Source: Aotearoamyces nothofagi
Taxonomy: Eukaryota; Ascomycota; Leotiomycetes; Leotiales; Tympanidaceae
DNA: 64,000 bases
Assembly (NCBI GenBank): GCA_015345905.1
Contig: JADDTR010000014.1
Span: 124,001-188,000, forward strand
Direction of reading: 5' to 3'
A program made the position numbers and the translations under genes. This document shows, piece by piece, positions 36,223 through 54,748 of this stretch (position 1 is the stretch's first letter; every line of letters starts with the position of its first letter). The notes beneath the pieces were generated by a model, which was not told the origin of the DNA, searched no databases, and saw only the letters and a list, made by a program, of their open reading frames with translations.

Positions 36223-37089
36223 GTGCAACGCCCCGAACAGGGCAGCCGCGTCTCTCGCAGCCTCACGTCCGAAGAAGCCGTCAGGACAAAACCTCGCGCG
36301 GGCATGAGGATGTCTGCCCGCCCAGCCGCAGGCCTGCTGCAGATGCCGGCCGAGCTCCGCCAGGCCATCTACCAGCACCTGGCCATCCTCGAGCTGCCGC
36401 CGAACCCCTACGACGAGAACCCGAAGCCGCACCCGCTGCTGCTCACGAGCCGCCAGCTGCGCGCCGAGTACCGGCCCGTCTACTACGCCAGCAACATCTT
36501 CCACCTGTGGGATAGGGGGAGCCGCCGAGGATCCCACCCCGCCCGCGACGTCGACGCCCTCGACCCGTGGACGCACCTCCCCGCAGACGTCCTCGCGAGC
36601 ATCACAGAGGTCATGCTGCACGTCTCGACGGGCAGCGTGGCGATGCCGGCCGCGCTGGCCGCGCGCCTGCCCAACCTCGAGATGCTGCACATCAGCTGCC
36701 AGACGCAGGCGCGCGCGCCCGTCCCCGCGGCGCCCTCCAGCGACGGCGAGCAGGGCGGCGCCGCCTCGCCGCCGCCGCCGCGGCCCCGCGAGCCGGCGCG
36801 CCCGATGCTGCTCCCCAAGCTGGTCCGCATCCACCTCCACCTCAACCCGCACTCGGACAACCGCCAGGCCCTCGCCCGGCAGGTCTCCCGCAGCCTGATG
36901 GCCTGCCCCGAGGGCTTGGAGTGGCTGCGCGGCGAGCGCAGCTTCGCCTCCTGCGCTAGGTGTGGCCAGATGCACCTGACCGAGAGCATGTACAAGGTCA
37001 AGGACAGAATGAGGCTGCTCGGCGCCGCGGATGCCATACCGACAGCCGCGGGGGCCACGGGGACCGGGCAGAGGGATACATTACAGTGA
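36223..37089 (+). CDS. Hypothetical protein, 2EXR/F-box-like fungal family
   Basis: Open frame of 288 residues, extremely GC-rich with nearly every third codon position G or C. Possible start codons are at 36223 and 36304 (MRMSARPAAG). The N-terminal domain shows the pattern of fungal 2EXR/F-box-like proteins: LLQMPAELRQAIYQHL, then a stretch LLLTSRQLRAEYRPVYYASN followed by IFHLWD. The middle is Pro/Ala-rich; a late CARCGQMH may be a metal site. Because GC content is so high, long frames also run antisense (36169-36975) and in another plus frame (36567-36959); I favour this one because its N terminus matches a known pattern. Function unknown. Confidence 0.6.
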   Translation: MQRPEQGSRVSRSLTSEEAVRTKPRAGMRMSARPAAGLLQMPAELRQAIYQHLAILELPPNPYDENPKPHPLLLTSRQLRAEYRPVYYASNIFHLWDRGSRRGSHPARDVDALDPWTHLPADVLASITEVMLHVSTGSVAMPAALAARLPNLEMLHISCQTQARAPVPAAPSSDGEQGGAASPPPPRPREPARPMLLPKLVRIHLHLNPHSDNRQALARQVSRSLMACPEGLEWLRGERSFASCARCGQMHLTESMYKVKDRMRLLGAADAIPTAAGATGTGQRDTLQ

Positions 37090-37637
37090 CGGGGCAACGC
37101 AGGGGGTCACGAATTCTTTGGCTGTTAGCATTAATCAAATACCATCCATCCATCCGATTGATTCTTTTCTTTTCTTCTTTGAAAAACCCGAGAAGAGATC
37201 TCTAACCAGAGCTGGCGTCGCAGTACGACAAGCTCCTGTAACCAGATCACGACAAGTGCGATGATGATGATACGTGAGACTTTTGAATTATCCATAGTAG
37301 TATTTATTCAGTACCGTATAGCTGTGCTGCTGTCGGCATGGTAGAGAGGCGACTGGCATGGCGAGCATTCCGCGGCGTCTCGTCGGACGTCGAGACGCGA
37401 CATTAGATGGCAGGGCGGTTGTATGCTATCAATCACCAGTGCATGCATGACTAGCTCAAGACGCTCAGGAAGTGTAGAGATGTCGATATCCAACCCGATC
37501 CATCCCGATCCATCCCAACCCATCCCAACCCAGCCTGATCCAACCCAACCCAATCCAACCCCACGGCGCGACGATTTACAGAACCCAGTGGCACAGACCG
37601 CCCGGCCCGCCTACAGACGCGCTCCGCCAGCCCGCGC
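37090..37637. other. Convergent intergenic region
   Basis: About 550 bp between the 3' ends of the GC-rich gene (+) and the carboxylesterase (-). Includes the AATCC/AACCC-type pentamer repeat listed separately. Confidence 0.5.
37491..37562. repeat. CCCAA/CCCGATCCAT-type minisatellite
   Basis: About 14 degenerate 5-bp units (ATCCC, AACCC, GATCC) in tandem just beyond the 3' end of the carboxylesterase gene. Confidence 0.85.
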
Positions 37638-39674
37638 CTAATACCAAAGCGCCTTATTCCAGTACAGGCTCCGGTCATTGGCCAGATCGTCCTCGGCGAG
37701 GGCGAAGGTGGTGTTGAAGACGATCTGGGTGCCGGTGGTGCCGTTGCCGTACTGCGGCCAGTAGAGCTTGTCGCTGGGCCACTTGGTGTTGGGGTTGCCG
37801 GTGAGGACGAAGGAGAGGAGGTATTTCTGCATCGTGATCTAGGGAGGAGGCGGGTTAGTGGATGGGGGTATGGGGGAGGAGGGAGGGGGATAAAGGGGGC
37901 AGGGAGGGGAACGTACGGCTACGGTGGAGTTGACGGTGGTGGTGGTGGTGCTGGGGCCGGTGCTGCTGCTGCTTGAGTTGGATGAGCTGGATGTTGCGGA
38001 GGCGGCTGACGAGGCGGATGCAGCGGTAGAGACGGAAGCGGCGGCAGAGAAAGCAGCTATCGAGGCAGAAGAACCTGCTGAGGTACTGTTGCTCGACGTA
38101 CTGGATCCGCTGTCCGTAGTAGTGCTAGAGCTCAGAGTGTACGTGCTATACCCTACATTCATTCATCGCTAAATCAGTTCTGGAACATAATCCATCTGCC
38201 AGCGGCAAGGAGGCGCCTTACAGTAGTAGTCCTGATCCGTGCCATGAGTAGCCTCACCCAGGGCGACCTGGGCGTTCCAGGTCTTGTTGCTGAGAGCGTG
38301 GGTGAGAGCCAGGTTATGCGCCGTCAGGTCGAACGACTGTTTCATGTCTGCGAAGCGCAGGCCGGGGCTCGTGTAGGACGACTCGGGGTAGAGCTCCAAG
38401 AGCTCGTCTACGACGTCGTCGGTGATGGAAGGGAAGAAGATTTTTAGGTAGGTAGACACGTCGTCGGTCGTGTCGACTCCGGAATATGCCTGGCTGTTGG
38501 CCTCGTGAAGCTCGTGGCTGATCACCAACGGGCCGCTGAAGTTGAAGCGCTTCTGGTAGAGCTGTGCTTCGTCTATTTAGGCATTAGCTCGTGAGCGATC
38601 CGAGGTCTGGAAACGAAGCTTACAAGTATCTGCGACGATATCACCGTCGACGCGAGGTTGCATTTGGAAGGTGTAGTTAGATACAGTATCGCTAGAAGCG
38701 GTGGTGAGAGTGTCGAAGTCGACATTGCGGACGCAGTCCAGATGACCACCTTCGCAGCCAACCGTCGATGAAACATTCTGCCAGAAAGCCTACAAGACGT
38801 CAACACGTGAGATTCGATTCGTCGTTCCATGAGAATGGAACAAAAGCAGAAAAGTTGAACCCACCTCTGCATGCTGGTGGCCAGCGCCAGGAACAAATCC
38901 TGGTGACATGACATACGCACGGCTGAAGAGCTGTTCGGCGCGACCAGCAAAGCGCTAAAGAAACCGTCAGTATTTTTAAAGACGCAAGTAGTCTCGAGAG
39001 AAGCATACAGTCAACTGGAACAGGACCTGAGAACCACCAGCAGAAAACCCGACGGCGGTAACCTCATCAGGGTCACCACCGAATGCGCTGATGTACTTCT
39101 TGGTCCACTGGAAAGCCTGCTGGACATCCCAAATGGCCACGTTTGAAGTACCGCCCTCGTGGAGCACAGTAGGGCCGTTGGCAAGGCCGGTTATACCGAG
39201 TCTGTAGTTATAGGCAACAAAGACGAAGTCGGTACTCAGGCTGAAGAGGCCCTCTGGGGTGTTTTGGGATTTGCTTCCCGCGGTGAACCCACCCCCATAA
39301 GTCCAGACAAGAACCGGAAGATTCCTGCCCGTGCTGTTCGCGGGCGCCCAGACGTCCAGATACAGACAGTCCTCCTCGGACGAGCAGTCGACGTCGGAGT
39401 CAGCCAGGGTCCCGTCGTTGACGGCGCTCTCCACAGGGGGCCACTCCGGCCTCGCAAAGCGCAGGTCGCCCGTCGGGACGGCGGCGAAGCGGATGTTCTG
39501 ATACTTGTAGTAGCCCAGCGACGCGTTCCCTGCGACAGCAACGACGGTGGAGTAGTCGAGCGTGACGGTAGGGAACGAGCCCGAAGCCGTCGTGGCGGCC
39601 TCGGCCTGGGTCGTCGTCGCCGCCGGGACAGCGGAGACGGCCAGCGGCAGCAGGAGAGCAGCGAGCAGGCGCAT
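37638..39674 (-). CDS. Secreted type-B carboxylesterase/lipase with Ser/Thr-rich insert
   Basis: Six exons on the minus strand: 39674..39009, 38954..38865, 38789..38624, 38572..38222, 38152..37917 and 37838..37638, giving 569 residues. The start MRLLAALLLPLAVSAVPA is a signal peptide. Family marks: EEDCLYLDVW, LPVLVWTYGGGF (oxyanion hole), and nucleophile elbow VGFSAGGSQ (Ser211, with Phe replacing the more usual Glu); the likely catalytic His is in EATHGTDQ. Exon 5 encodes about 70 residues almost wholly Ser/Thr/Ala between YYWYSTYTLS and ITMQKYLLSFVLTGNPN, an unusual insert inside the catalytic module. Junctions restore conserved reading, for example YY/W across intron 4. Substrate unknown. 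It lies next to sidA on the same strand but 1.3 kb away; a role in siderophore hydrolysis is conceivable only by position, since SidJ belongs to another family. Confidence 0.88.
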
Positions 39675-40977
39675 TGTGCAGTCGGGCAGACAACAGATGA
39701 AAGGGAGCAAGAGAAAGCGTCACTGCATACACAGGCACACAGCACAGCAAAGAAAGGCCGGAAACGAAACAGGAGAACCGGGCCCTTATAACCGCCTCGC
39801 CGGCCTCGTCGCCGCGGGATATATCGCCATCTGACAGCTACGTCGTCCTCCTCGCCCGACGCAACCGCTGACGACTTGCATCACGGCATACAGCGGCTCG
39901 GAGATTGGGTCGACAATGCCATCGTCGCCAGACACGCAAAGAGAGCACAGCACCCGCCGCCGTCGCGCAGGGCGGTGGTGACGGCTCACGGGCGAAGCTG
40001 GAAGCTGGAAGCTGCGCCAGGGAGCTGACGAGTCGGCCTACGAATCTCGGCTGTTTGAGTTGTGCGCGCGGAGACGGCAAAATAGCGACCGTCTGATCTA
40101 ATCTAATCTCTCCACGCCCGTGTTTCGTTTCATGTTTCATGTTCCGAACGCTCCAAACCGCGATGTTGGTGATAAAAACTATGAGAATATACCACGAGAA
40201 TATCAAAAAGAGCATGTCATCAAGCCCTCATCTCTCTTGTAGGAAAATACTGCTGGCGATGGATTCCCCCCCCCCGTTTCGAGAGGATCCCCTCGGCATG
40301 CTTGCTTGGCTGGATATCACGACATCGCATATGCTCTGACGTATGCTAAACGACTCGCCAAGTACCGGCGGAGTACCGGCGAGCTGACCCGATGAGACGA
40401 GACGAAACGAAACAAAACGAAGCGGCGACGAGGCCCTCCCGCCACTTGCGGGGCCTGCCGGCTTCGGCAACTGGCGCTGTCGCTGTGAAATGGGGGAGGA
40501 GGAAAGGAAGGGGTACTTGTATATACGTGCTCGACGTCTACAGTAGAATCCTCTTGAGATTAAGATTCTAAATCTCAAGAAAGACAAGGAAGCTCGATAG
40601 GAAAGAAGGCACAAGGGGTGGGATAGAGACGTGCTCGACGTCTGGGTGCCGTCTCCACAGCAGGATAAGCCAAGACCTCGGCGTCAGGAATCGGTGCGAC
40701 GTTTCCCAAGTAGTATTCAGTTCGTCGGCAGAGAGATGAGAGAGATGTAAGGAAATCCATGTATTCTCTCGCCCCGTCAATAATGTTTTTTCTATCTACA
40801 AATCTGCCGGTGTGCGTCTACCCGCATCTACCTACCGGCATCTACCAGCATTTATGTACCAGCACCCAACCCAAGCCCCCTCTCGACGAGAACGGGAGAT
40901 GTTACATATGGACAGAGAGGAGAAGATGCCAGGCTGCGGGATCCGCAGGTGGAAGAGAGAAAGGAGGAAGGCGGATT
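39675..40977. promoter_or_regulatory. Upstream region of the carboxylesterase / downstream of sidA
   Basis: About 1.3 kb with short low-complexity tracts such as GACGAAACGAAACAAAACG (about 40398-40420) and repeated CTAC/CATC words at 40818-40860. A run TCTGATCTAATCTAATC at about 40091 loosely resembles the GATTAGAT words upstream of sidI. No gene supported. Confidence 0.5.
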
Positions 40978-41107
40978 TTATAGCTTCGACCGCGCGATTC
41001 GTGTGTCTGCCTCGGAGCCGAAGATTGACTGCACCATTTGTCCGCCGCGGATTGCGATGATGGAGAGGAGGGTGTCGCTCAGCTGGATTGTCGTGTTAGT
41101 ATGTTGA

Positions 41108-41138
<31 letters not shown>

Positions 41139-42725
41139 GAGAGAAACAAGTAGGGGAGATGATGAGGGAGACTTACACCGTGCGTGCTCTCGTTGCATCC
41201 CTGTAGCCAAACCCCGGCATTATCTGCAACCTTGGCCGGATCGAAATCGACCTTGTAATCTCTCCTGACCGGGAACTTCCCACCAGCAGCGCGACCACTA
41301 TTTCTCAAAAGGCCTCTGGTGTTGCCTAGCATCTGCTCGTGCGCATTTCTCACATACCCCGTCGCGACAAACACCGCATCGACCTTCAAGCTCTCCTTTC
41401 CGGCCGACTCGGCACCGTCGTCCCGAACCTTCTCCAGCTCCAGGATGAGCTTCTGGTGTCCTCCCTCGGTCAGGGTCTTGGTCTTCACCACCTTGCGGTT
41501 GTTCCTGATCGCTACCTTCCATGCGGCGCGATCCGGATTCTGCACGCGCTGCGTATATAGGCGCTGGTACAGATTCTCGATGAGGTTGAGTCTGACTACT
41601 CCGTAGTTGGTGCCTCGATCGAGCGTGAGGGCGTCGGCGCGGAGCTTGGCATCCTGGCGATAAATGCCGTCAACGCGATCAGGGTCGAAGATCTCGTTGA
41701 CAAAGGGCGAGTCGTCGCTCGGATGGAGCGAATCGCCTTTGATGATCAGGGTGACCTTTGCGTTGGGGTAGCGGGAGGGGAGGTCGTTGAATATCTCCGC
41801 GCCGCTCTGGCCGTTACCGACTACGGCAATGTTGTATGGCGCAGATGGGTTGGGGAGGGCTGTAGCGACCCGGCTAGAGTATGTGGAGGAGTGTACGACC
41901 GAGGGGTGATTCTGTGGGAATTCGGAAGGGATCAGGGCTCTGCCGCCGACGGCAACCACGACGTGGCGCGCACTTCGCACGGTTGTCTCGAGGGTTCGGG
42001 TATCCCGCGAGGTGACGGAAAAGCAATCGACCTTTCCATCCGGGCCGGTATGAGGGGTGACATCGATGACCTCTTGGCCGTAAGATACCGCGCCATTCTG
42101 GTCGAAATGGCTGGCACACCAGCGGAGATAGTCCTCATACTCCAGCCTGGTGGGCAGGAAAGTATCGAGGTTGATGAAGGTGTTGAGGCGGTTCTTGGAG
42201 TACAAGTAGTTGATGAAGGTGAACCTGGATAATGGGTTTCGTGGAGTAGCGAGGTCTTTGAGGAAGGAGATCTGCATCCTTGCTCCCGGGATCTGCATCC
42301 CGCTGTGCCATGCGAATCTGGGCTGCTTTTCGAGGAAAGAGACCTTTGGAGCCCGAGAGCGTGGAGAGGCGATGTTGGCTTCATGGAGAGCAATGGCGAT
42401 TGCCAGCGAGGCGGGACCGAAACCGACACAGATGAGATCCTGGACATCATCTGGATCCGAGGCTGGGTATGCGATCTGGGAGTTTGCTGCTTGCCTTGGT
42501 CTTGTAAGCTTCGACTCGGGCGACTGCAGAGCTTGGAGCGCGGGGACGAGAGATATGCTGGAACGGAATGAAGATGCCCAGGGCTGCCACTTACAGAAAC
42601 TTCAAAGGATCTTCTGACCCGGCATCGTGGTTCGGGAGGGCTGGGAGTCTGATCTGTTGATCTCCGTGCTCTACCGCACCCCCAGTGACGTGGTCCAACC
42701 TACTGACTGCGGCAGTAGACGGCAT
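40978..42725 (-). CDS. sidA: L-ornithine N5-monooxygenase, first committed step of siderophore synthesis
   Basis: FAD- and NADPH-dependent hydroxylation of ornithine. Exons on the minus strand: 42725..42595, 42494..41177 and 41082..40978, giving 517 residues (A. fumigatus SidA is 501). Marks: FAD motif LICVGFGPASLAIAIA (about 64-79), the SidA signature MQISFLKDLATPRNPLSRF (about 117-135), NADPH motif VVGNGQSGAE (about 268-277), the ornithine-site stretch DDSPFVNEIFDP, and C-terminal NESTHG/LSDTLLSIIAIR joined across the last intron. The first intron's acceptor is uncertain (CCAAG at 42495 or an alternative at 42501, both in frame, differing by two residues). The last intron contains a (GAAA)n run. 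No PTS1 at the end (RSKL is close but the last three, SKL, are in fact present: the protein ends ARSKL), so peroxisomal import is possible, unusual because Aspergillus SidA is cytosolic. Upstream GATA elements suggest iron repression. Confidence 0.93.
41106..41138. repeat. (GAAA)n microsatellite in the sidA last intron
   Basis: Eight uninterrupted GAAA units (CTTT on the sidA strand) inside the 94-bp intron 41083-41176, between donor and branch-point region. Confidence 0.95.
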
Positions 42726-43608
42726 GGTGGCGATGATAGTGTGCTGGGTTTGTTTACTGTTTCGGGCAGTGTGAAGACTCCTCGCAAGTGCAGAAGCAAG
42801 CCCTCGTCTCTGGTGATTGTGAACTTGTGAACTTGTGGCTATGAACTTGCAGAAGAGAAGATGAAGTGGTGTAAAAGGCCGCAAGAAGAGCTTCGCCCAG
42901 TGAATTTTTATCAGCCCGTGAACGACGGGCCCAGCAAAATGGGGTGATGTGCCAGTAGAAAGATTTGTACAGCAATGACGCGGATAGCATGGCAAGGATA
43001 GCCCGCTCTCCACGCCAGATTGCCCTGCTCACCGCAGCAGAGCCCTCGCCGTCTGATGTCTCCCACCGCATGAGGCGCGATCTACGCATCTGTGACTGTC
43101 GATGCCGTGATTCGCGATGCGGGCCTCGAACCCCAGCGCGCTGCGACGTAAGAGCCCCGTCGTCGACCCTCGACTACGGCGCGCCCTGCTCGGCATACAG
43201 CAGCCCGGCAGCGCCATTCCCCACCGGCGGAGGCACTCGGAGTATATAGCCAGGATCGGGGGAGACATGCAGCGGAGGGCAAGGAGGGTACGGAGGAGAT
43301 GGGATGGTGGGATATAAATTTTACAGTGGAGATGCCGTTGTGCTGGCGCAGTAGTGGCATAGACTGCGTGCTTGCTTGTTTCCTTAGCGAACATTCAGCC
43401 CGGTAGCTGGTCGTCGGCCGGTCGTCCATCCAAGCTGCCGTCGACTTTCCTGCAGCCGAGCGGAGAGAACGGCGACGGCCACGACAGCCCGTTTCTTGGC
43501 GCCGTCTTGGCGTCTCCGCCCCGGCCTCCCCTCCGGATCATCATTGCTCCATCCAGCCAGCGACGCGCGCGAGTGGAGACATCTTTTCCCGCTCCGGCGT
43601 TATCTCGA

Positions 43609-43617
43609 ATCAGATAA
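43609..43617 (+). promoter_or_regulatory. SreA-type GATA element ATCAGATAA upstream of sidA
   Basis: Exact match to ATCWGATAA, the extended element bound by iron-sensing GATA repressors (SreA, Urbs1, Sre1 class). It sits about 880 bp before the sidA start, flanked by TTATCT (43600-43605, an AGATAA on the other strand) and ATCAGATTA (43622-43630), so three GATA-like words lie within 31 bp. A weaker CTGATAA core (minus strand, 42906-42912) is closer to the gene. Confidence 0.65.
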
Positions 43618-43807
43618 GATGATCAGATTATTCCTGGCTGCATCCCGAGCACCGCCTGCCACCCTCGCTGGACCCCGGTTGCGCCAGGTGTCGCTGCTTT
43701 GAGGCGGCGTTTGATGCCGGCTGGCTCATATGACTGATTGTACTGTACAGCACAAGCAATACCGGGGGCGAGTTCGAAGTCGACGGCACACGTTGGCAGC
43801 GTTCAGT

Positions 43808-43894
43808 AAAGCACGGCATTGCAACGGTCGTATCACGACAGCAGCTCTGGTTGGAATTTCTTGGGTTGGCACAGAGATGGGACTGCTTCTTCTG
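43808..43894 (+). repeat. Short dispersed repeat, GC-richer copy
   Basis: Aligns with 7703-7788 over its whole length; this copy keeps C and G where the other has T and A. It runs into the CTGCTTCTTCTG tandem units that follow. Family not recognised. Confidence 0.5.
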
Positions 43895-44006
43895 AACTGA
43901 AATGAACTGACACAGAAACCGGACAGCTTCTTCTGCACTGATCCAGCACAGACAGGACTGCTTCTTCTGAAATAGCACAGAGACAGAGACAGGACTGCTT
44001 CTTCTG
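43880..44006. repeat. Tandem repeat with GGACTGCTTCTTCTG core
   Basis: Four units whose cores start at 43880, 43921 (GGACAG variant), 43955 and 43992, spaced 41, 34 and 37 bp, with ACACAG/AGACAG spacers. Lies in the sidA-sidI gap; function unknown. Confidence 0.8.
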
Positions 44007-44941
44007 TACCTCCTGTCTCCCCGTCTTGCCCTGGAAGTGCTCTCCTACCAAAAGCACGTCTGTCTTTAGTGCTCACAGGTGTGCGTTCAAATTTGAAAGC
44101 AGCCTCGAACACGTACGATATACGGCCGGGCGCTGAGGAGCATGGCTGCTAGAGACCCAACTTCCAAGTAAGTGCGGTAGCAAGGTATGGCGAGTGGAAA
44201 GCAGCGGAAAGCCACCGGGCCAGCCTCTTGGCTTCTTCTCAACCAGCTTTCCATTGTTCCATGCATGTGGAGACCGGCCTGATAATCTCCGCGGCTTCGG
44301 TTCTGCCAACTGCCGCACCTTGATCCATCGCGTGCAGACCGAGGACCTCGTGCCGCGACCGTGGCATCCGTGCATATATGCGATACGAGACAGTCGCCCA
44401 TGCTGGGAGGACGCGGCGGACGTGCAAGGCGGTTCTCTCTTTGCAGTGGCAGCGGTGCTTGGGAAACCTGGGTCGAGCAATTAATTACCGCAGACCCGAG
44501 ATGCGAGACCGCGAATGGAGGCGTGCCCGGATGGCGGAATAAGCTTAAATGGTGGGGTGGGCAAAGAATGGCAGCACGCCGACCCCTCTCTCTGTTCGAT
44601 ACTTTTGTAGAGACGGAGCCTCCTCCTTCTGTAGATATGTCTCTGCAGTTCGGGACTCGCATAGAGGAAGTAATAGATTCTTCTCTTGCTTGTCTGTCTG
44701 GAAATGCCACTCTTGATCCCTCGAAACTGGACCGAAATAAAAGAAATGAAGGAAAACCCCACTGTGAGAAAAACACTGATACCGCGACGATCCCATGTAC
44801 TAATCGTGCTGTCTGGCTCACATCACATCATCACATAGCTAGCACGCACAGCTTGTTTTCTTCTTCTTTCGCTATCCCATCCCATCCCATCCCATCCCAC
44901 TACGCACGCACACATCACACCCAGAGTTTTGCAGCCAGCCC

Positions 44942-44953
44942 ATCTGATTAGAT
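44942..44953 (+). promoter_or_regulatory. ATCTGATTAGAT word, copy 1
   Basis: First of three identical 12-bp, nearly palindromic words in the sidA-sidI gap. It is one base from ATCTGATAA-type GATA sites (A to T), with a second GAT at its end. Regulatory role is inference. Confidence 0.4.
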
Positions 44954-45055
44954 CCGCTCCCAACCCCCCTCCCCCTCGTCTCTCCCTCCCACGCGCGCCG
45001 ACGTAGGGGTACCCACGCAAGGCCGGAAGAAAAATTTCCCCCCTCTTCTTTTCCA

Positions 45056-45077
45056 GGGGGGGGGGGGGGGGGGGGGG
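45056..45077 (+). repeat. Homopolymeric G run (22 bp)
   Basis: Uninterrupted G22 directly after a CCCCCC/TTCTTTTCC stretch. Could form a G-quadruplex, and its length may be inaccurate in the assembly. Confidence 0.9.
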
Positions 45078-45402
45078 AGCAGGTCCCACACCGGCGCCTG
45101 CGTGCACACAAACGCCTCGGGTCGAGTCTCTCGTATCCGTACGACGCAGATGCGGAGCGTAAACCGTCGGGAAGAAAGGAGAAGGAGAGGAGAAGCGATG
45201 CGATGCGCGGTGCCTGCCCCCTGGACAGCGTGCAGAGCCGGACGGACAGGACAGGGCAGGGCAGGGCAGGGCAGGGCGACGGATACGAGAGGCGTCGACG
45301 GGCGGGAAAAGGTGCCTCCCCTCCGCCGACGTGCCCACGTGCCGCCCTTCCCCCCCCCTCCTTTTTTCCGAACCGCGAACGGGTTCCGGACCACGCCATC
45401 GC

Positions 45403-45414
45403 ATCTGATTAGAT
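45403..45414 (+). promoter_or_regulatory. ATCTGATTAGAT word, copy 2
   Basis: Same 12-bp word as at 44942, here in context GC-word-TCGGC. Confidence 0.4.
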
Positions 45415-45537
45415 TCGGCAGCGCGGGCCAGGAGCGGTGAGGAGAGAGAGAAAGGGGGGCGCGAGCGAGCGAGCGCCCAGCACTCGCCTCCCGGCGCCTC
45501 AACCGCCGGGCCCAGATCAACAGATGCAGTTCCCCGA

Positions 45538-45549
45538 ATCTGATTAGAT
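45538..45549 (+). promoter_or_regulatory. ATCTGATTAGAT word, copy 3
   Basis: Same 12-bp word, 135 bp after copy 2, preceded by CCCCGA. Confidence 0.4.
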
Positions 45550-46893
45550 GCTGGGTTACATCATTGCCCGGCCCCCCCCTGGTAGCGCGCGCCCGTCCTG
45601 GGCCCCCTGCCGACTCTCGTACGTAAGGACATCGAAACAAGCCTTGTCTCGCGTCCGGGGGGGGATGAAGGCAATTAGTTGGTTTTTTTCTGTTTATTTG
45701 CCTAGGTGATGGAATGGAACTAACTTGGCTTGCTTCTTTCCTTGGCTGCTTTGTGGAGGGTTGGTGTGGCTGCGATGCTGCTTTTAGGGCGAGCGACGGT
45801 GCGGATGCTTGGGATGCTGCTTTTAGGGCGAGCGAGGGGATGGGTTTTTGGATGGGGTTTTGGGTGAGGATGGGGATGGGGATGGGATGGGACGAGATGG
45901 GACGAGATGGGGATGAGATGGACTGCATATGGCGTTGTGTGGGATGGGGAGTCGAGATGGAGGCGTGCGGAATAGGGGAGTCGAGATGAGAAGCTCGAGA
46001 TGAGAAGTTCGAGATGTCAAGGTTCTGCCGATTACAGCCGGTAGGTAGCGACGAGGAGACCTCCCATCTCAACCCTCCCTCCATTCCGCCGACCCAGCCT
46101 TCCTCCAGGGCCGTCGAACCTCGCACGACCCGTTCCGTGACTGTACCGTACTGCACAAGTACAACAGCTACGTTCCTAGATAATATAATGTCTGGAGAGA
46201 AGGACAGTAGCTGTTTTACAGGGGATAGCAGGGGACGTATCTTCAGATCGCGGCGAGGTACGTGTTTGATATGTGGGTATTGAGAGGTCTGCGTTGGAGA
46301 GGCTGGAAGCTGGGCTGGATGCTGGGCTGGGATTTGTGGAGGGGGAGGGGATGGAGGAGATGGAGGAGATGGATAAGTGAGAAGGATGAGGAGGAGATGG
46401 AGGAGATGGAGGAGAAGGATGAGGAGGAGGAGATGGAGGAGACACGTGACGACGGCTTGGTGGACGAGGCGCCGTGTACTGAATCTACCGTCGTCAAGCA
46501 CGTGGGGCGTATTATGCACTGCGAGTGCCGCAGGACAGTCCTGCCTCTGCCTCTGCCTCTGCCTCTGCCTCCTCGACAGTCCCTCCTGTCCTGACCTCGC
46601 CCGGCCCTTCCCAGCGGCCTCCAGCACCATCCACCGTCCACAACCCCCTCGTCTACCAGAACCTGAACCAGAACCTGAACCAGAACCGGGTACGAGCCAG
46701 CAAGCAGCAAAGCAGCAGGCATCAATCCATGCCAGAGCCCAGCTGGCGTCCCTCGACGTCCTTTCCCCCCTTTCCCCCTTTCCCATCCAGACACCGGCGC
46801 TGCTGTAAAGGCCTGTCCGCCGATGCCGCCCAAAGTCCCGCCGGCTGGACAGCACAGCGCGGCCAAAAGCGGCGGGGCCGGGCTGGCCAGCGG

Positions 46894-46902
46894 ATCTGAT
46901 AA
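46894..46902 (+). promoter_or_regulatory. SreA-type GATA element ATCTGATAA upstream of sidI (1)
   Basis: Exact ATCWGATAA match about 1.33 kb before the sidI start, within a GC-rich context (GCGG-site-ACCCGC). With the next site it forms a direct pair 61 bp apart in the same orientation. Confidence 0.65.
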
Positions 46903-46954
46903 ACCCGCACCCCTGCTAGCGCAGCGATCGGCACTGAAGTGAAACGCATCGGGG

Positions 46955-46963
46955 ATCTGATAA
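46955..46963 (+). promoter_or_regulatory. SreA-type GATA element ATCTGATAA upstream of sidI (2)
   Basis: Second exact match, same orientation, with similar flanks (GGGG-site-CCGCGG). Pairing of two such sites is typical of functional iron-GATA promoters in the known systems. Confidence 0.65.
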
Positions 46964-47910
46964 CCGCGGATCCCTGCAAGGCCGCGCCAAGCTGCTGTAC
47001 TGTATCTCCTCTGCCGACTCGCATCCCGGCTGCGAAAACGGGCACAATGGCTGCTGCTTTGGACGTTGGATTCTACAAAACAGCAAATGGCGAACCTGCT
47101 GTTTTCCCCGTCCTTCTGTCTTCTCTCTGTCCGGCCCTCTACGGCCGAGCGTGCGGCCGCCGCGGCTTGGGCGTGCTTGGCGGCTTGCTGGAAGGGCGAC
47201 GTAGAGGGGTAGAGGGGCAGTGGACAGACGCTGCTCGGCGACGAAGACCGGCGACCGGGTATTCAATATCTCCGCCACGTTAAAGCGGCACGAGAGACGC
47301 ACGGCAGGGGGCGGGGGGATGCCAAGGCTGGCTAGCTCGGCTCGAGACCCCGACTGAGGCCCCACAGGCCGGGGGCAGCCTGAGGCGATGACGCCAGCGA
47401 GGGCTGCAACGCGAGCTTCGATGATGGAAGAACAGAAAAAGCACACGGTGCGGCTATAGTACACGAGTGATATAGGAGTACTATAGCAGCACTATAGCAG
47501 CACTATAGGAGCACTACAGCATCGAAAACAGCCCTGTCGCGATATAGCCACTGCCCATGGGTCCGTGGCAGCCGCTCCATCGCGGCCTGGCTGGCCTGGA
47601 ACAGATACAGCTCCGCCAGGCCACGGCGGACGAGGTCGGAGAGGGACCAGACGAGGTGGGAACGAGATGGATGTCGACCATCTCGTCTGCGGCATATGCG
47701 GGCTGTCGCTGCGAGGGTGGGTGATCGACGACGGCGCTTTTCCCCTTTTTTCCCTTCCTGGTCGAATCTGGATGGGATGGTGGGCTGGAAGGGGGTGTTG
47801 CTTTCCCTGGGGCGGGCCTCGGGTCCGGGCTCTGATGTCTCTTTCTGACTCGGATAATCTCTGGTGGGTGGGAAAGTGACGTTGCTGCTCTTTCTCTGTC
47901 GTTGAAGGCT

Positions 47911-48138
47911 TGGGATAGAGGATATACTGTAGAAGATACAGTGTAGAGTATTCACTACAGAGGATATACTGCGGAGGAGACACGACGAAAGATACATTAC
48001 GGAAGATACACTCCGGAAGAGACATTGCAGAGTATTCACTACAGAGGATATACTACGGAGGATACACTACAGAGTATTCACTGCGGAAGATACACCATTG
48101 GATACACTATAGGTTACACCACAGAAGATACACCACGG
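47911..48138 (+). repeat. Degenerate tandem repeat in the sidI promoter
   Basis: About 230 bp built from variants of GGAAGATACACTACAGAG and GTATTCACTACAGAGGATATAC, ending some 90 bp before the sidI ATG. Unit length is about 20-21 bp, with frequent GATAC and CGGAAG words. It should lie in the promoter or 5' UTR of sidI. Confidence 0.75.
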
Positions 48139-48225
48139 ACAAGACACAGACAGAGATTCAGATAGGCACACGCCAGCCAGCCAACCAAACAGACTGACGC
48201 TGACCAAATCAACTCACATCCAGCC

Positions 48226-50444
48226 ATGGCTGCTCCAGAGACGGCCATCCGCCGCCTCCACCAGACCTCCTCCCACCTCTCGGGCATCCCAACCGACGAA
48301 TACGCACAACTCTCCATCGTCCACGGCGAATCCTCACCCGCCCTGATCAACGCGACTCTCGGCTCCCTCCTCGACACACAGGCCGCGCTGCGAGGATCCG
48401 AGGAATGCGTCGTCCTGCCCTGGACCGGCACGCGCTGGACCTATTCACATCTCCAGCAAAGGGCAAAGACGCTGGCCAAAGGCATGCTGGATCTTGGCAT
48501 CAGGCGCGGAGATCGGATTGGCATCATGGCGGGCAACTGTGAGGAATACGTTGCCGTCTTCTTCGCTGCGGGCTATGTGGGGGCCATCTTGGTGGTTCTG
48601 AACAGCACATATACGGCGGCGGAGGCGAGGTATGCTTTGAATCATTCTGGTGAGCATTGTCCTTTCATAATCTCACTCTTCGATTCCTCAGTGACCAAGT
48701 TGTTGACTTGTAAACTCGTCAAGGATGTAAAATCCTGTTTATACAGGAGAAATATGGAAGACATGAGAACACACAGCTTTTGAAACAGGTTGCGCCCGAG
48801 AGGCTTGGGAATGGCGAGTTTGAGACTCTAAAGAAGGTGGTTGTGGTGAGAGGAGAGTTTGATGGCTTCCAGACTTATACGAATCTTTTCGATCAAGGTA
48901 CCAAGATTGCGGACGACGTGTTGGAAGCGGCCAGGCTTGAAGTCGATACGCACGATGTGTGTAATCTGCAGTATACGAGCGGATCCACTGGACATCCAAA
49001 AGCTGCCATGTTAACACACCAGTAAGCCTTCTCCGCTCCCCAATGAGGATTCCAGCAGCAGCCCAACCTTGATTCCGCCAAACTCACTGTTGAGACCGAA
49101 ATACCCCATATAAAAACCCCCATATAAAAAACTAACATCCTCAGCAACATGATCAATAACGCCCGCTCAATTGGCTCCCGCATGTCCTTCACCCCCGCCG
49201 ACATCCTCTGCTGTCCACCACCCCTCTTCCACTGCTTCGGTCTCGTCCTCGGCCTCCTCGTCTGCGTGACCCACGGCGCCAAGATCGTTCTCCCATCGGC
49301 CTTCTTCGACGCCCCATCCGTCCTGGCTGCACTATCAGCTGAATCCTGCACCGCGCTCCACGGCGTCCCCGCCATGTTTGAAGCTCTGCTCTCCCTCCCG
49401 CGCCCCTCGTCCTGGTCCTGTCCTAACCTCCGCACCGGCATCGTCGCCGGCGCTCCCGTGCCACAGCCACTAATGGAGCGCATGCTCGCGGAGCTCAACA
49501 TGAACGAGTTCACAAGCAGCTACGGTCTCACGGAAGCGAGCCCGACGTGTTTTAATGCGAGGACGGATGATACGATTGAGCGACGTCTGACCACTGTTGG
49601 GAAGATCTTGCCGCATTTACATGCTAAGATTGTGGATCGCGATGGCAAGATTTTGCCGGTGGGCGAGAGAGGTGAGCTGTGCATGGCGGGCTATAGTTTG
49701 CAGAAAGGCTACTGGAGGAATGAGGAGAAGACGAGGGAGTGCATGAAGAGGGATGAGAGGGGGGTGCTGTGGCTGCATACCGGTGACGAGGCCGTTTTTG
49801 ACAACGAGGGGTACTGTACTATTACCGGAAGGTTTAAAGATATTATTATTCGAGGTATGTTTATCCAACCTTTTCCTCTTTCTAACTATGCCTTTTCTAT
49901 CTGGAAAACCATCTGCTTCCATCTCTCAATTTCTACGCCTTCCTTTTTTGTTATGTAATGTCCTTTTCCATCTAGACGAAATCTCATCCCTACCTATCAG
50001 GCCTGGGAATGATTCCTGAACAATACCAATAAAACAAGCCCCGAGACTGATCCCGTGCTTCACAAAACAGGAGGCGAAAACATCTACCCCCTCGAGATCG
50101 AATCGCGCCTCGTAACCCACCCCTCCAACACGATCCAGCGCGCCGCCGTCGTCGGGATCAAGCACGCCAAATACGGCGAGGTCGTCGGCGCCTTCCTGCT
50201 CCCCTCGGCTTCCGCTCCCGCCCAGCGGCCCACAGACGACGCCCTGCGCGCCTGGGTCCGCGCCGTCCTCAGCCACCACAAGGCGCCCGCGCACATCTTC
50301 TGGTTCGGCGATGCGGATGTCGGACTGGATGACGTGCCGCAGACGGGGAGTGGGAAGGTGAAGAAGCATTTGTTGAGGGAGGTGGGTGGGAGGGTGGTGA
50401 GGGGGCGGGAGGGGGAGGGGAGGGAAGAGGGACGGGATTTGTAG
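48226..50444 (+). CDS. sidI: Mevalonyl-CoA ligase of siderophore biosynthesis (acyl-CoA synthetase), PTS2-targeted
   Basis: ANL-family ligase. Exons 48226..48649, 48724..49021, 49145..49854 and 50071..50444 give 601 residues. Motifs: P-loop YTSGSTGHPK (about 225-234), YGLTEASP, the hinge-region GRFKDIIIRGGENIYP joined across intron 3, and the C-terminal lysine motif PQTGSGKVKK. The N terminus has R10-L-x5-H-L18 (RLHQTSSHL), a perfect peroxisomal PTS2; in Aspergillus SidI carries a PTS2 too. Together with divergent sidA and convergent sidF next door, this supports SidI, which activates mevalonate to mevalonyl-CoA for fusarinine-type siderophores, over a generic fatty-acid ligase. Intron 1 ends in TCAAG; intron 3 is long (216 bp). 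The C-terminal tail after KKHLLREVGG is repeat-like (Gly/Arg/Glu). Two ATCTGATAA boxes and a tandem repeat lie upstream. Confidence 0.88.
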
Positions 50445-51052
50445 GGATTTTTCTTTTTCACTTTGTAGCCTTTCTTTTTGAGAAAGAGATAGGGAGATGG
50501 CTGTGGATAGCAGGAACGTTAAAATATACACACATAGATCTTGGAGTATCTCGTCGTTATCTCCGCTGTAGAAGTTGGAGCGAGTAGATTGATAGATGGA
50601 TATTTACAAGAAGAAGAAAAGCACAATTTTTTTTATAGAAAATACTCTGAGACTTGTTGCTCTGTGAGAGGGGGGCGGAGGGGATGGGAGCGGGGTTGAT
50701 GAATTTATTTTATTTAATTTTATTATTGATTGATTTTATTATACTCCATTACAGACAACCCTCGGTCTCTTGTCTCTTGCTGGTTGGGTTATGTATGTTT
50801 TTATGTATGTATATATGCATCCGCTTTTCTAGCCCGCTACTCCGCCCGACGCGGAGCCAGATACAAGGGGCATCGACGCGGTGGGTGGAGGAAACTACGG
50901 CTGGACTGCACTGTGGGCTTCGCTATACTCTTCCTGACTCTCCCAACCCTCCAGATCGTCCCTCCAGATCATCTACCCACGGCGTCTGCATCTACGGCGT
51001 CCCTACTGTGCAGAGGTTGTGGATATAGACCGTTGGATTGGGTTGGATTGTA
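50445..51052. other. Convergent region between sidI and sidF
   Basis: About 600 bp between 3' ends; AT-rich patch at about 50690-50750 (TTTATTTTATTT-like) likely includes the polyadenylation regions. No gene supported. Confidence 0.5.
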
Positions 51053-52450
51053 TTATAATTTAACTAGCCTCTCCCTCGCCTCCACATCCACATCCAGCCA
51101 CGGCGTCCCTACCGTGCACAGCTGAAAGAAGCGCTCCCTGCTGCACCGCACCTGGGCGCTGCGCTTGTGGTACAGATCCACCAGCCGCTCGACATGGAAG
51201 CCGTGCTGGGCGTCGAGCTGCAGGACGCGGGCGCTGGTGGCTCTGGGCTCGCCGACGACGGACTCGGTGCGCGGGTCGTCGAGGAAGAGGTAGTGCATGA
51301 GGCTGGGCCACCAGGCGTGGGCGCGGTGGGGGCCGCGGAAGAGGGGCGCGCCGACGAGCGAATGCCGGCCGCGGTCGTACGGGGACGAGGGGTAGTGCGC
51401 GCCGAGGTGGTCTTCCTGAAAGGGGGGGTGAGCTGGGGGGAGTTTTGGAAAGGGGGAGGGGATACGTACTTTGGCCCAGTAGATCTCGAAATAGGCAAAC
51501 GGCGTGTCGTCGAAGCGCGCCAGGACGGTCAGGGTGTGCGGGTCGTCGTGCAGGCCCTTCAGGTAGCGGCGGTGATGATCCAGATCGCCCGTCTCGTTCC
51601 AGCCGGCCGCGACGCGCGGGTCGTTCTGCCAGGCGTGGAACAGGGCGAGGTGGTCGGCATCGCGGTAATCCAGGGCGAGCATGGAGAAGTGCTCGTCGAG
51701 GTGCGGGACGTAGCGGCTGTAGATGACGGATCCGGGGGGCGGCTTGGGGGGCCGCACGGGGTGCAGGGCGTGGACGGGGGCGCTGGGGAAGCGGGTGGTG
51801 AGGGTTTGAGCGAGGGGGAAGGCCGGGAAGGACGTGAGGCTCTGCCGGCCGGTGCTGGGCGGCGCGGGCAGCCAGGCGGGGCGGGGCCCGAACGGCGACC
51901 CGGCGCCCTGCCAGAAGGTGCTCCGCAGCAGGACGACCTCGCGGCCCGCCAGCCCGGCCCAGGACGGCGCGTCGCGCGACGCGCTGGGCGGCAGGGCGTG
52001 GGCGACGGCGAGGCCCACGGCGCACAGCTCGGCGCGGATCAGGTCGGTCTGCGTGCCGACGAGGCTGAGCCGGACGGCCTCCTCGGCGTGGTGCGCGGTG
52101 AAGAGGGCGTAGACGAGGAGCCACAGCTGCGCGACGGACGGCGGGTCGACGCTGTGCCAGGCGAAGGTGGTGGACGGGGCGCGGCGGCAGCGCGCCCACT
52201 GCGAGTTGTCCGCGAGGGGGACGGCGTGGCCCCCGACGAGGCCGGAGAAGGAGAGGGAGGCGCTGTGGAGGGGGAACGGCGGGGCCTGGCTCTCTGGCGA
52301 GCCTGGAGAGAGCTGGAGCCAGTATTGGGAGCCGCTGGAGGCACCCGACGTCGGCTGGGCGTGGTACCGGGTCAGGTACGGATGCGGGAGCGCGATTGCG
52401 AATGTCTCCCACGGAGAAGGCGAGCCGGCGGTCTGCTCTCGGGAAGCCAT
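51053..52450 (-). CDS. sidF: Hydroxyornithine acyltransferase (anhydromevalonyl transferase), IucB-like
   Basis: GNAT-fold N-acyltransferase that attaches anhydromevalonyl to N5-hydroxyornithine in fusarinine-type siderophores. Exons on the minus strand, 52450..51470 and 51415..51053, give 447 residues (A. fumigatus SidF 462). The C-terminal domain (about 245-447) shows siderophore-acyltransferase marks: LDEHFSMLALDYRDADHLA, FHAWQNDPRVAAGWNE, FAYFEIYWAKEDH (across the intron), and HAWWPSLMHYLFLDDPRT. The N-terminal domain is degenerate, as usual. The 54-bp intron is in frame and stop-free, so an unspliced frame reads through, but GTACGT/TTTCAG signals and family alignment favour removal. It ends ERLVKL; VKL is only PTS1-like. 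SidL-type acetyltransferases share the fold; neighbour sidI favours SidF. An upstream ATG at 52810 is in frame but extends into repeat-free, non-conserved sequence. Confidence 0.88.
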   Translation of the reverse strand: MASREQTAGSPSPWETFAIALPHPYLTRYHAQPTSGASSGSQYWLQLSPGSPESQAPPFPLHSASLSFSGLVGGHAVPLADNSQWARCRRAPSTTFAWHSVDPPSVAQLWLLVYALFTAHHAEEAVRLSLVGTQTDLIRAELCAVGLAVAHALPPSASRDAPSWAGLAGREVVLLRSTFWQGAGSPFGPRPAWLPAPPSTGRQSLTSFPAFPLAQTLTTRFPSAPVHALHPVRPPKPPPGSVIYSRYVPHLDEHFSMLALDYRDADHLALFHAWQNDPRVAAGWNETGDLDHHRRYLKGLHDDPHTLTVLARFDDTPFAYFEIYWAKVRIPSPFPKLPPAHPPFQEDHLGAHYPSSPYDRGRHSLVGAPLFRGPHRAHAWWPSLMHYLFLDDPRTESVVGEPRATSARVLQLDAQHGFHVERLVDLYHKRSAQVRCSRERFFQLCTVGTPWLDVDVEARERLVKL

Positions 52451-54748
52451 TTGGTGAGATGCAGAGGTGAGATGCAGAGGTGAAGCCGAGGTGGGGAGTA
52501 TAGAAGCCAGAGATGGAGGAGCCGGAGATGCGGAACCAGTCTGAGGAGATCGAACCGAAGCTGCTGTCGTTATGCGACAGTTGCGAGACTGTGCTTTATG
52601 GAAAGTTGCCAGATCGAGGAAACTCGACCAGAGCCGTTGTCGCGACACGACAAGCCGCGATACCGCGCGCCTCTGGGTTTTGAACTCGGCCTCGGGGACG
52701 TCGACGTCAGACCCAGCGCAGCAGTTATCGGAGAGGGGTGGGAACGCGACACCCCCGTCGCAGTCGCCGTCGACGTTAGACTCGATAGCGCAACTCGGCG
52801 TGCACATCACTGCAAACTCTTCTCTGGCCCGGCGGGGCGATGGAGGGGTGGGGATTTCACCTGGTACGTAAGGACGTGGATGATGGGGAGGGGCTGTTCT
52901 GAATAGGGCTCGAGCTCCGCTGTAGGGTAGGGATGGGCGACGGCTATTGCTGATGGCGCGTCAGCGGGTCGGGTTGGATGGGTACGGCTTGCGAGTGATG
53001 GGTATGGACTGTGCTGGGAGGGTATAGAGGGTATAGAGGAGGGTATAGAGGATGTAGAGGATATATAAAAGCAGAAGTACACATACAGGCCAGATATCCA
53101 ATATAACCCGCCCAAACCACCAACGAGTAGGCCCCGGTACACGCAGCTGGCCGTCATCCCCAGTCCCCATGCCGTGTACTCAACCACCAGCCGTCACGAC
53201 CACCATCGGGCGACCGACATCAGCCAAGACCTACCTGTCCCCGGGGCAGAAGCCAAGCCGGCAAGATGAACCCCAACTGCCATGTTGCTTGCTTGCATCG
53301 CCGTCCCCACTACCCACTCCCAGTCCCAGTCGCATCCCCTGTCCCGACAATTTCCTCCCCCCCCTGGCGGACCCAGACCGGGGGGTCGAGTCCTGGCTTT
53401 TAAAGTTATCAGATCAAGCTAACGCCGACCCTAGCGCCCTTCCGACGCGCCGGCCGAGAAAGCGGGGCCGGGACGCCGAGCAGCCCCGGTACGCCCAGGT
53501 GGGGCGGCGTCTGGGAGCGGGACCGGGCTGGGAGACTCGAGGCCGGGACGCTGCTTTTGCCGGCGCGCGCTCGGCGGGCTGGGTCGCGCAGCTTGGGAAT
53601 GAAGACAGGGCCGGCAAGAGACGGCGGGAGCAGATGGCGAGATCGGCATCCCTCGAGATGCTACTCCCGTGGACCTCGAGATGCTACCAGACCGGCTTTT
53701 CTGCTTTGCCTTTTCGGCCTCTGGTCTTCTGGGATGCTGGGCTTGCTTTGCTCGTGTGCTCTCTCTCTCTCGCTGCTGCTGCTCGCTTCTCCCAGCCGGG
53801 ACGCTTCTCGCTCGCATATCGTGTGGCTCTCGTAGGAGAGGATAGCGGTGCTGGATTAACGATTCCTCTGCAAAGACTCTCTCTCCTTCGAACATATGAA
53901 AAGTAGATAGACACTGCTGAGATAGACTGCAACCCAACCGTATCTTCTCTGCTCTTGGCTAATAACATCAGTAGTAATGGCTTGCAGTATAGTGCAGTTG
54001 GTTCCAGCCATGCTCACCTGTTTTTATCAATTTGCCTGGTAGTTTTCCCCCTTGCGATCATCTATCGTCAATGGTATTCTCAGATGGCAAAATGCCAAAC
54101 GATTTTACTGTACTGAAGTTCGCTTCTTCTACTACTATAGGACGACATACTACAGGGGAACAATCTTTGATTCTTCAGGCTCGTGGAGCTGAGAAGCTTG
54201 TCTAACTCAGTTTCAATAGATTGGGTTCATTAGATAGACGTTAAAATAATATAATTATATTTTAGGAAAGAGTATCAAGGGTAGAAACTGTTGAGACAGA
54301 CTACACCTTATGATTGGGAATAGGTGGCGTTACTTATAAAGGGGATGTCTTGGAGATAACTGTCTTTCGTAGCCAAGGTTTAGTTAGCATCTGATTCCTG
54401 ATATAGGAGGAATGTATCAATCTTTTCTTTTTGCGGCTTATTCGGAAACTCGCAGCAGTTCATCCAAAGCCGAGAAAATAATCACCAATCACTGACAGGA
54501 GATTGTCCATTTGCAGTCTACCAGCGTATTCTATTATTCTACTCTTTCATTTTGTCTATTCCGTATCGTATCAAGTAGCGACTATATAACATTAATAATC
54601 TAATCTAATCTATTCTATTCAAGTCCATCATATAATCCCTTTATCCAACCTGCGCCTCCGCACTAAACTCCCCCATTCCGGCCGCCCGACTCGAGACTCT
54701 CCATCTCGCGCGACCTGATCAATAGCCCACTATCGTATCACCCTGTCA
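52451..54748. promoter_or_regulatory. Upstream region of sidF / downstream of the MscS gene
   Basis: About 2.3 kb. GC-rich up to about 53.9 kb, AT-richer after. Contains GTATAGAG repeats at about 53015-53060 and an exact SreA-type site at 53406. A plus frame at 53169-53906 is low-complexity and probably not a gene. From 54.0 to 54.7 kb nothing is recognised. Confidence 0.55.
53406..53414 (-). promoter_or_regulatory. SreA-type GATA element ATCTGATAA upstream of sidF
   Basis: TTATCAGAT on the plus strand, so ATCTGATAA reads in the direction of sidF, about 960 bp before its start. It completes a set of exact sites upstream of all three siderophore genes. Confidence 0.65.

What the first reader, a model, noticed from the sequence alone, without database searches (positions are those of the whole stretch)
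43609..53414. Exact ATCWGATAA iron-GATA elements upstream of all three siderophore genes
Four exact matches are present: 43609 (sidA side), 46894 and 46955 (sidI side) and 53406 (sidF side, oriented to the gene). They lie about 0.9-1.3 kb from the starts. The motif is the known SreA/Urbs1-type target, so the cluster is predicted to be repressed by iron through a GATA factor.
Basis: partly seen in the sequence, partly recalled or inferred. Interest (0 to 1): 0.75.

Follow-up and report, generated by a model that had tools for sequence, protein, structure and literature searches.

The report
Iron-repressor binding sites near siderophore genes
Three genes in this fungus that make part of an iron-scavenging molecule carry the same short DNA switch that sits in front of most of its other iron genes we could check, so one iron-sensing repressor probably shuts them all off when iron is plentiful: a known kind of control, found here in a new genome.

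Summary
Counted over the window they are marginal (1.2 expected); within the island's non-coding DNA about 0.1 is expected. The genome encodes a two-finger SreA-like GATA protein and a HapX-like protein. The reading as SreA sites is well supported; binding and iron response are untested. Beyond the finding: no SidD-type synthetase was found, but a SidN-like ferrichrome synthetase was; its promoter, fetched afterwards, holds three more exact sites. The window locus may therefore make anhydromevalonyl-hydroxyornithine for a ferrichrome-type siderophore. A known kind of control in a new genome, with an interesting pathway twist.

The parts
43609..43617 (+). ATCAGATAA, iron-GATA site 884 bp upstream of sidA; part of a 31-bp cluster with TTATCT (43600), ATCTGATCA (43620, -) and ATCAGATTA (43622, +)
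46894..46902 (+). ATCTGATAA, first of a tandem pair upstream of sidI (AGCGGATCTGATAA)
46955..46963 (+). ATCTGATAA, second of the tandem pair upstream of sidI
53406..53414 (-). ATCTGATAA 956 bp upstream of sidF, overlapping ATCAGATCA (53408, +)
44942..44953 (+). ATCTGATTAGAT, sub-consensus copy 1 in the sidA-sidI intergenic region
45403..45414 (+). ATCTGATTAGAT, copy 2
45538..45549 (+). ATCTGATTAGAT, copy 3
40978..42725 (-). sidA-like L-ornithine N5-monooxygenase gene (three exons, spliced by eye), ends in -SKL
   Evidence: PF13434 E 3e-101; PDB 6x0h and 4b63, 512 bits
48226..50444 (+). sidI-like acyl-CoA ligase gene, N-terminal RLHQTSSHL (PTS2-like)
   Evidence: PF00501 E 5e-91; the name sidI rests on position and resemblance, not on an equivalog model
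51053..52450 (-). sidF-like GNAT acyltransferase gene
   Evidence: PF13523 E 2e-50
36001..54000 (.). GC-rich island (0.53-0.63 in 2-kb steps) between flanks of mostly 0.46-0.50 (one step 0.36), holding all three genes and all four sites

Best explanation
The four sites are operator elements of the genome's SreA-type GATA repressor. In iron-replete cells SreA would bind ATCWGATAA upstream of sidA, sidI and sidF, and of the other iron-uptake genes with the same word, and repress them; when iron is short it lets go and the genes are induced. Shown here: the sites, their placement, their strong and specific sharing among iron-gene promoters of this genome, and a gene for a two-finger SreA-like protein. 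Inferred: that SreA binds them and that the genes respond to iron. Further inference: the three window enzymes make anhydromevalonyl-hydroxyornithine (AMHO) for the SidN-like ferrichrome synthetase on contig C9, which carries the same sites, rather than for a fusarinine synthetase, of which none was found.
For: Exact sites, all outside the gene models. Ten independent promoters of genes located by homology: 9 hold the motif (sidA, sidI, sidF, sidA2/sidC shared, sidL-like, hapX-like, two FTR1, SidN-like NRPS; not sreA), 13 sites, 0.33 expected; outside the window 6 of 7, 9 sites, 0.23 expected. Controls: 2 sites in 55 loci, 149 kb, 3.3 expected at the genome rate. De novo ranking puts ATCWGATAA first, also with the window's three promoters left out. 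A genome-wide search for same-strand pairs with a gap of 20-60 gave 4 places: sidI, an FTR1 gene, a ferric reductase, and one unexplained place. The C9 promoter was fetched late as a test and held three exact sites (P 6e-6). The base before the motif is A or G in 13 of the 15 sites at iron genes and in 2 of 10 other sites (P 0.002), as in the Histoplasma consensus (G/A)ATC(T/A)GATAA. SreA-like protein: two GATA domains and a Cys-rich linker.
Against: No binding or expression data. sreA has no site within 1.5 kb (nearest about 2.7 kb up). No motif in the fetched flanks of 13 TRI12-family transporter loci (loci were cut for 14 of 30 matches, one overlapping another) or of 4 enoyl-CoA hydratase loci (6 of 9 matches), although a siderophore transporter or SidH may be among them. 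Neither CCAAT (1.2 against 2.4 per kb) nor the CBC-HapX bipartite word was enriched. Genome-wide the motif is below its reversed control, so most of the 561 copies are probably chance; the pair search gave 4 against 86 for the reversed pattern (not examined why). The purine rule leaves out three sites near iron genes that I did not count as promoter sites (C23:201322 and C22:514030, both C before ATC; C9:115629, G, inside the NRPS frame). Window sites lie 0.9-1.3 kb out; those of hapX, sidC, one FTR1 and the ferric reductase lie 0.1-0.4 kb out, though sidA2 and the other FTR1 are at about 1.3 kb.
Confidence: 0.86

Rival explanations
1. The four sites are chance matches in long intergenic stretches; the genes are regulated by something else.
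For: Window-wide the count is only marginal; the motif is not in excess genome-wide; the sites lie 0.9-1.3 kb from the starts.
Against: About 0.1 expected in the island's non-coding DNA; 6 of 7 iron promoters outside the window share the word while 55 control loci hold 2 in 149 kb.
Confidence: 0.05
2. The sites are read by another GATA factor (nitrogen, light or development) rather than SreA.
For: The GATA search returned 7 finger matches, two of them in the SreA-like gene, so about five other GATA genes exist; the word contains HGATAR.
Against: Plain HGATAR is not enriched in iron promoters; the extended word is the one reported for SreA and for the Histoplasma siderophore cluster; the genes sharing it are iron genes.
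Confidence: 0.07
3. The island (36-54 kb) came by horizontal transfer and its sites are a relic of the donor's regulon.
For: Sharp GC contrast of the island; the genome holds a second sidA beside a SidC-like NRPS.
Against: Other iron-gene promoters are GC-rich too (sreA 0.601, ftrA 0.622, SidN-like 0.551; ten iron promoters against 20 spread 1.5-kb samples, P 2e-4; the samples mix coding and non-coding DNA), so local GC richness goes with iron loci and is by itself no sign of transfer; two sidA copies are known from other fungi. No gene tree was built.
Confidence: 0.06

Closest known systems
SreA regulon of Aspergillus fumigatus (PMC2610380, passages read)
   Same: ATCWGATAA over-represented in promoters of iron-uptake genes (5.4-fold there), HGATAR hardly so; two-finger GATA protein with Cys-rich linker
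   Different: Here no SidD was found; the AMHO genes sit with a second sidA; some sites are up to 1.3-1.5 kb from the start
Histoplasma SID1 cluster, site (G/A)ATC(T/A)GATAA (PMC2275787, passages read)
   Same: Same ten-letter consensus, purine before ATC, shared by siderophore genes
   Different: One clustered set of genes there; here siderophore genes are on at least three contigs (C14, C22, C9)
Cladophialophora carrionii two-cluster arrangement (PMC10382037, passages read)
   Same: sidA next to sidC with a shared promoter, plus a second sidA with sidF and sidI; SreA motif in promoters
   Different: Its second cluster includes sidD and sidH; neither was recognised here
Epichloe festucae SidN / epichloenin A (PMC3642064, passages read)
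   Same: Type II ferrichrome synthetase (three A-T-C modules, terminal T-C repeat) whose third A domain takes AMHO; the third A domain of C9 best matches SidN A3 (3ite, 494 bits)
   Different: Product unknown here; the AMHO genes are on another contig

Membership tests
SreA-type iron-GATA element | Exact ATCWGATAA upstream of iron genes | tested here: met
SreA-type iron-GATA element | Over-represented at iron genes against background of the same genome | tested here: met
   13 sites in 14,961 bp against 2 in 149,314 bp
SreA-type iron-GATA element | Cognate regulator encoded: two GATA fingers with Cys-rich linker | tested here: met
   C22, ATG 516719; (linker read by eye)
SreA-type iron-GATA element | Bound by SreA | not testable with these tools
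   needs EMSA or ChIP
SreA-type iron-GATA element | Iron-dependent repression of the gene | not testable with these tools
   needs expression data
Fusarinine/TAFC pathway | SidD-type NRPS | tested here: not met
   PF00668: 14 matches, all 14 candidates scored: 6 in SidC-like C22, 5 in SidN-like C9, one each in C6 and C32 (PKS-NRPS-like by eye), one weak C1 match below cut-off; completeness of the assembly unknown
Fusarinine/TAFC pathway | SidH hydratase | tested here: inconclusive
   9 ECH_1 matches, 4 loci covering 6 of them read, none assigned; C1, C5 and C12 not fetched
SidN-type AMHO ferrichrome pathway | NRPS with three A-T-C modules and terminal T-C units | tested here: met
   C9, 4543-aa frame 111454-125082 plus a 5' frame from ATG 110899
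SidN-type AMHO ferrichrome pathway | Third A domain like SidN A3 (AMHO-activating) | tested here: met
   3ite 493.6 bits; next 286.9, itself a sum of two stretches. A 500-aa piece with the third A domain of C22 scores 254 bits to 3ite. Pocket residues not compared
SidN-type AMHO ferrichrome pathway | AMHO-containing ferrichrome is made | not testable with these tools
   needs mass spectrometry

The most novel reading that the evidence does not exclude
In this fungus the anhydromevalonyl branch (sidA-sidI-sidF) has no SidD and instead feeds a SidN-like ferrichrome synthetase on another contig, the two loci being tied together by shared SreA sites. The sidA-sidI intergenic region would be a 3.4-kb operator array: full ATCWGATAA sites at both ends and three ATCTGATTAGAT copies of weaker fit between them (3 of only 15 ATCWGATTAGAT in the genome), giving graded iron repression of both genes.
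Probability: 0.4. Interest if true: 0.5.

Novelty: new member of a known kind. Interest (0 to 1): 0.36.

Why it matters
It shows that a nine-letter word taken from other fungi predicts the iron regulon of an unnamed fungal genome well enough to find a ferric reductase without looking for it and to pass a promoter test on a gene chosen beforehand, and it ties a siderophore precursor locus to a likely synthetase on a different contig, which gives a testable product prediction (an AMHO-containing ferrichrome). The regulatory principle itself is established.

Tried and rejected
Horizontal transfer of the GC-rich island was considered and left unsupported: other iron promoters are GC-rich as well; no gene tree was made.

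A hidden gene between sidA and sidI was considered: the 655-aa frame 44948-46915 (-) has no Pfam match and Rfam found nothing at gathering score in 35-55 kb.

CBC-HapX bipartite sites (pattern recalled, not looked up here) were not enriched: 1 in the nine promoters examined, 0.07 per kb against 0.30 in controls; CCAAT alone 1.2 against 2.4 per kb.

SidH: four enoyl-CoA hydratase loci read, no assignment, no motif. The NRPS frames on C6 and C32 look like PKS-NRPS hybrids by eye (ketoreductase-like stretches; no domain search was run on them), so I did not take them for SidD.

NCBIfam gave no fitting name for the SidA- and SidI-like proteins (best matches far below cut-off); the names sidA, sidI, sidF, sidL, sidC, sidN, hapX, sreA, ftr rest on Pfam or PDB resemblance, reading of the frames and position.

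Rows dropped before counting: sidC was not counted apart from sidA2 (shared promoter); the ferric reductase was left out of the promoter count because the motif found it; the motif-centred loci L001-L008 and the NRPS-coding loci L030-L040 were in neither set; L087 overlaps L074. Sites near iron genes but outside the 1.5-kb promoters (C23:201322, C22:514030, C9:115629) were not counted. ftrA and ftrB promoters are 1,482 and 1,479 bp (cut by the locus end), the others 1,500 bp; promoters were fixed lengths, so that of hapX runs into a neighbour gene. The 55 controls are whole loci, coding and non-coding together; they include 13 TRI12 and 4 ECH loci, a weak PF13523 locus (L027), and about 1.8 kb counted twice (L028/L052, L029/L053). 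One search gave 8 of 9 promoters; the SidN-like one was added afterwards. An earlier fetch meant for that promoter (L092) turned out to start inside the gene and held no motif.
Full report
What is there. The window is C14:124001-188000 of an unnamed 25.48-Mb genome in 55 contigs; introns and gene content mark it as a fungus. A GC-rich island lies at about 36-54 kb (2-kb steps 0.53-0.63) between flanks of mostly 0.46-0.50. It holds a carboxylesterase gene (ATG 39674, -), a sidA-like ornithine monooxygenase (42725, -), a sidI-like acyl-CoA ligase (48226, +) and a sidF-like acyltransferase (52450, -). The nearest solved relatives of the SidA-like protein are L-ornithine N5-monooxygenases (6x0h, 4b63; 512 bits). 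The flanks hold housekeeping genes such as an RNA polymerase large subunit, chromatin remodellers and a C1-THF synthase.

The observation. Four exact ATCWGATAA, at the given places, no others in 64 kb. Gaps to the start codons are 884 (sidA), 1324 and 1263 (sidI) and 956 bp (sidF). Over the whole window the number is marginal (1.22 expected; 4 of 100 shuffles reach 4). In the 10.6 kb of island DNA outside approximate gene models, three Markov models expect 0.09-0.12.

Is the motif special to iron genes here? Iron genes were found by homology: a second sidA (C22) beside a SidC-like NRPS with which it shares a promoter, a second strong PF13523 acyltransferase (C22), an SreA-like gene (C22), a HapX-like gene (C21), two FTR1 permeases (C23, C9) and an NRPS on C9. 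Of ten independent promoters of at most 1.5 kb, nine carry the motif: 13 sites, 0.33 expected at the genome rate of 561 per 25.48 Mb. Without the window's three, 6 of 7, 9 sites, 0.23 expected. 55 control loci hold 2 in 149,314 bp. Of 63,756 patterns of nine letters (at most one W) seen in the ten promoters, ATCWGATAA is in the most, 9; close variants of it are in 7, and the best unrelated one is in 6. The exception is sreA, whose nearest site is about 2.7 kb up.

Two further checks. First, a genome-wide search for two motifs on one strand, 20-60 bp apart, gave four places: sidI in the window, FTR1 on C9, a ferric reductase on C17 (PF01794, E 1.7e-22), and one on C4 at the end of a zinc-type dehydrogenase frame that I cannot explain. 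The reversed control pattern gave 86 matches in that search; I did not find out why, so the pair search has no good yardstick beyond the genes it found. Second, the promoter of the C9 synthetase was read after the idea had been formed that it belongs to the same regulon; it holds three exact sites at C9:109428, 110107 and 110308, and an ATCTGATTA beginning 19 bp before one of them. A first fetch for it had missed the promoter and held no site; one further site was already known inside its coding frame (C9:115629).

Fine structure. The base before the motif is a purine at 13 of 15 sites at iron genes (13 promoter sites plus the two of the ferric reductase) but at 2 of 10 others, as in the Histoplasma consensus. 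In the 5.5-kb sidA-sidI region all five one-mismatch sites differ at the eighth letter only, against 5 of 26 in the 46 kb of flanks. Three of them are ATCTGATTAGAT at 44942, 45403 and 45538, without evident shared flanks. The genome has 15 ATCWGATTAGAT in all. ATC(A/T)GATTA and ATC(A/T)GATCA are among the variants that a Blastomyces study lists from genes regulated by A. fumigatus SreA (PMC2848559, passages read), so these may be weaker sites of the same factor. The word was picked after looking, so its clustering should be read with care.

How it works, most likely. SreA bound to the sites represses the genes when iron is plentiful, as proposed from SreA of A. fumigatus and the Histoplasma cluster (PMC2610380, PMC2275787, passages read). 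Distance is no strong objection: the title of a paper seen only in reference lists speaks of distal GATA sequences of the Ustilago sid1 promoter mediating iron repression, and sidA2 and one FTR1 gene of this genome have theirs at about 1.3 kb.

Which siderophore? In A. fumigatus SidI, SidH and SidF provide the anhydromevalonyl-hydroxyornithine that SidD assembles (PMC3709128, passages read). Here the condensation-domain search (14 matches, all 14 candidates scored) gave no SidD-like enzyme. The C9 NRPS has three A-T-C modules and two further T-C units, the layout described for SidN of Epichloe, whose third A domain takes AMHO (PMC3642064, passages read). The third A domain of C9 finds SidN A3 (3ite) at 493.6 bits; the next, linear gramicidin synthase, has 286.9 as the sum of two stretches. 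A 500-aa piece with the third A domain (by position) of the SidC-like C22 enzyme finds 3ite at 254 bits. The simplest reading is that the window locus supplies AMHO to the C9 enzyme. SidH was not assigned, and the assembly's completeness is unknown.

Against. No binding or expression data; no site in the 1.5 kb before sreA; none in the fetched flanks of 13 TRI12-type transporter loci or 4 hydratase loci; no CBC-HapX enrichment; no genome-wide excess of the word. The regulatory reading stands as a strong prediction, not a demonstration.

Verdict. Observation confirmed, interpretation supported. A known kind of element in a new genome; the pathway link to a SidN-like synthetase is the more interesting part.

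Noticed in passing
window 40981-40989 (-) and 48253-48279 (+): The SidA-like protein ends in -SKL, a peroxisomal PTS1 (signal recalled), and the SidI-like protein has RLHQTSSHL near its start, a PTS2-like stretch. SidI is targeted by PTS2 in Aspergillus; a PTS1 on SidA is not mentioned in the passages I read.
   Followed up: partly
sidA, sidA2, sreA, ftrA, ftrB and SidN-like promoters: TACTGTACW occurs in 6 of 10 iron promoters (9 copies in 15 kb, three at sreA) against 5 in 149 kb of controls and 3 in 46 kb of window flanks. A possible second shared element, chosen after looking.
   Followed up: partly
window 36001-54000; L043, L050, L098: Iron-gene promoters are GC-richer than 20 spread genome samples (P 2e-4; samples mix coding and non-coding), so GC-rich patches seem to go with iron loci.
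   Followed up: partly
L088 (C4:120408-120447): The fourth tandem pair of the motif in the genome, at the 3' end of a zinc-type dehydrogenase frame, with a third overlapping inverted site; no iron gene recognised beside it.
   Followed up: partly
window 61403-61748: A tandem array with a spacing of about 67 bp, seen as clustered 12-mers and repeated CGATAA.
   Followed up: no
window 46886-46907 and C9:712997-713018: The first sidI site and one FTR1 site share 20 of 22 letters around the motif, further than the nine-letter word.
   Followed up: no
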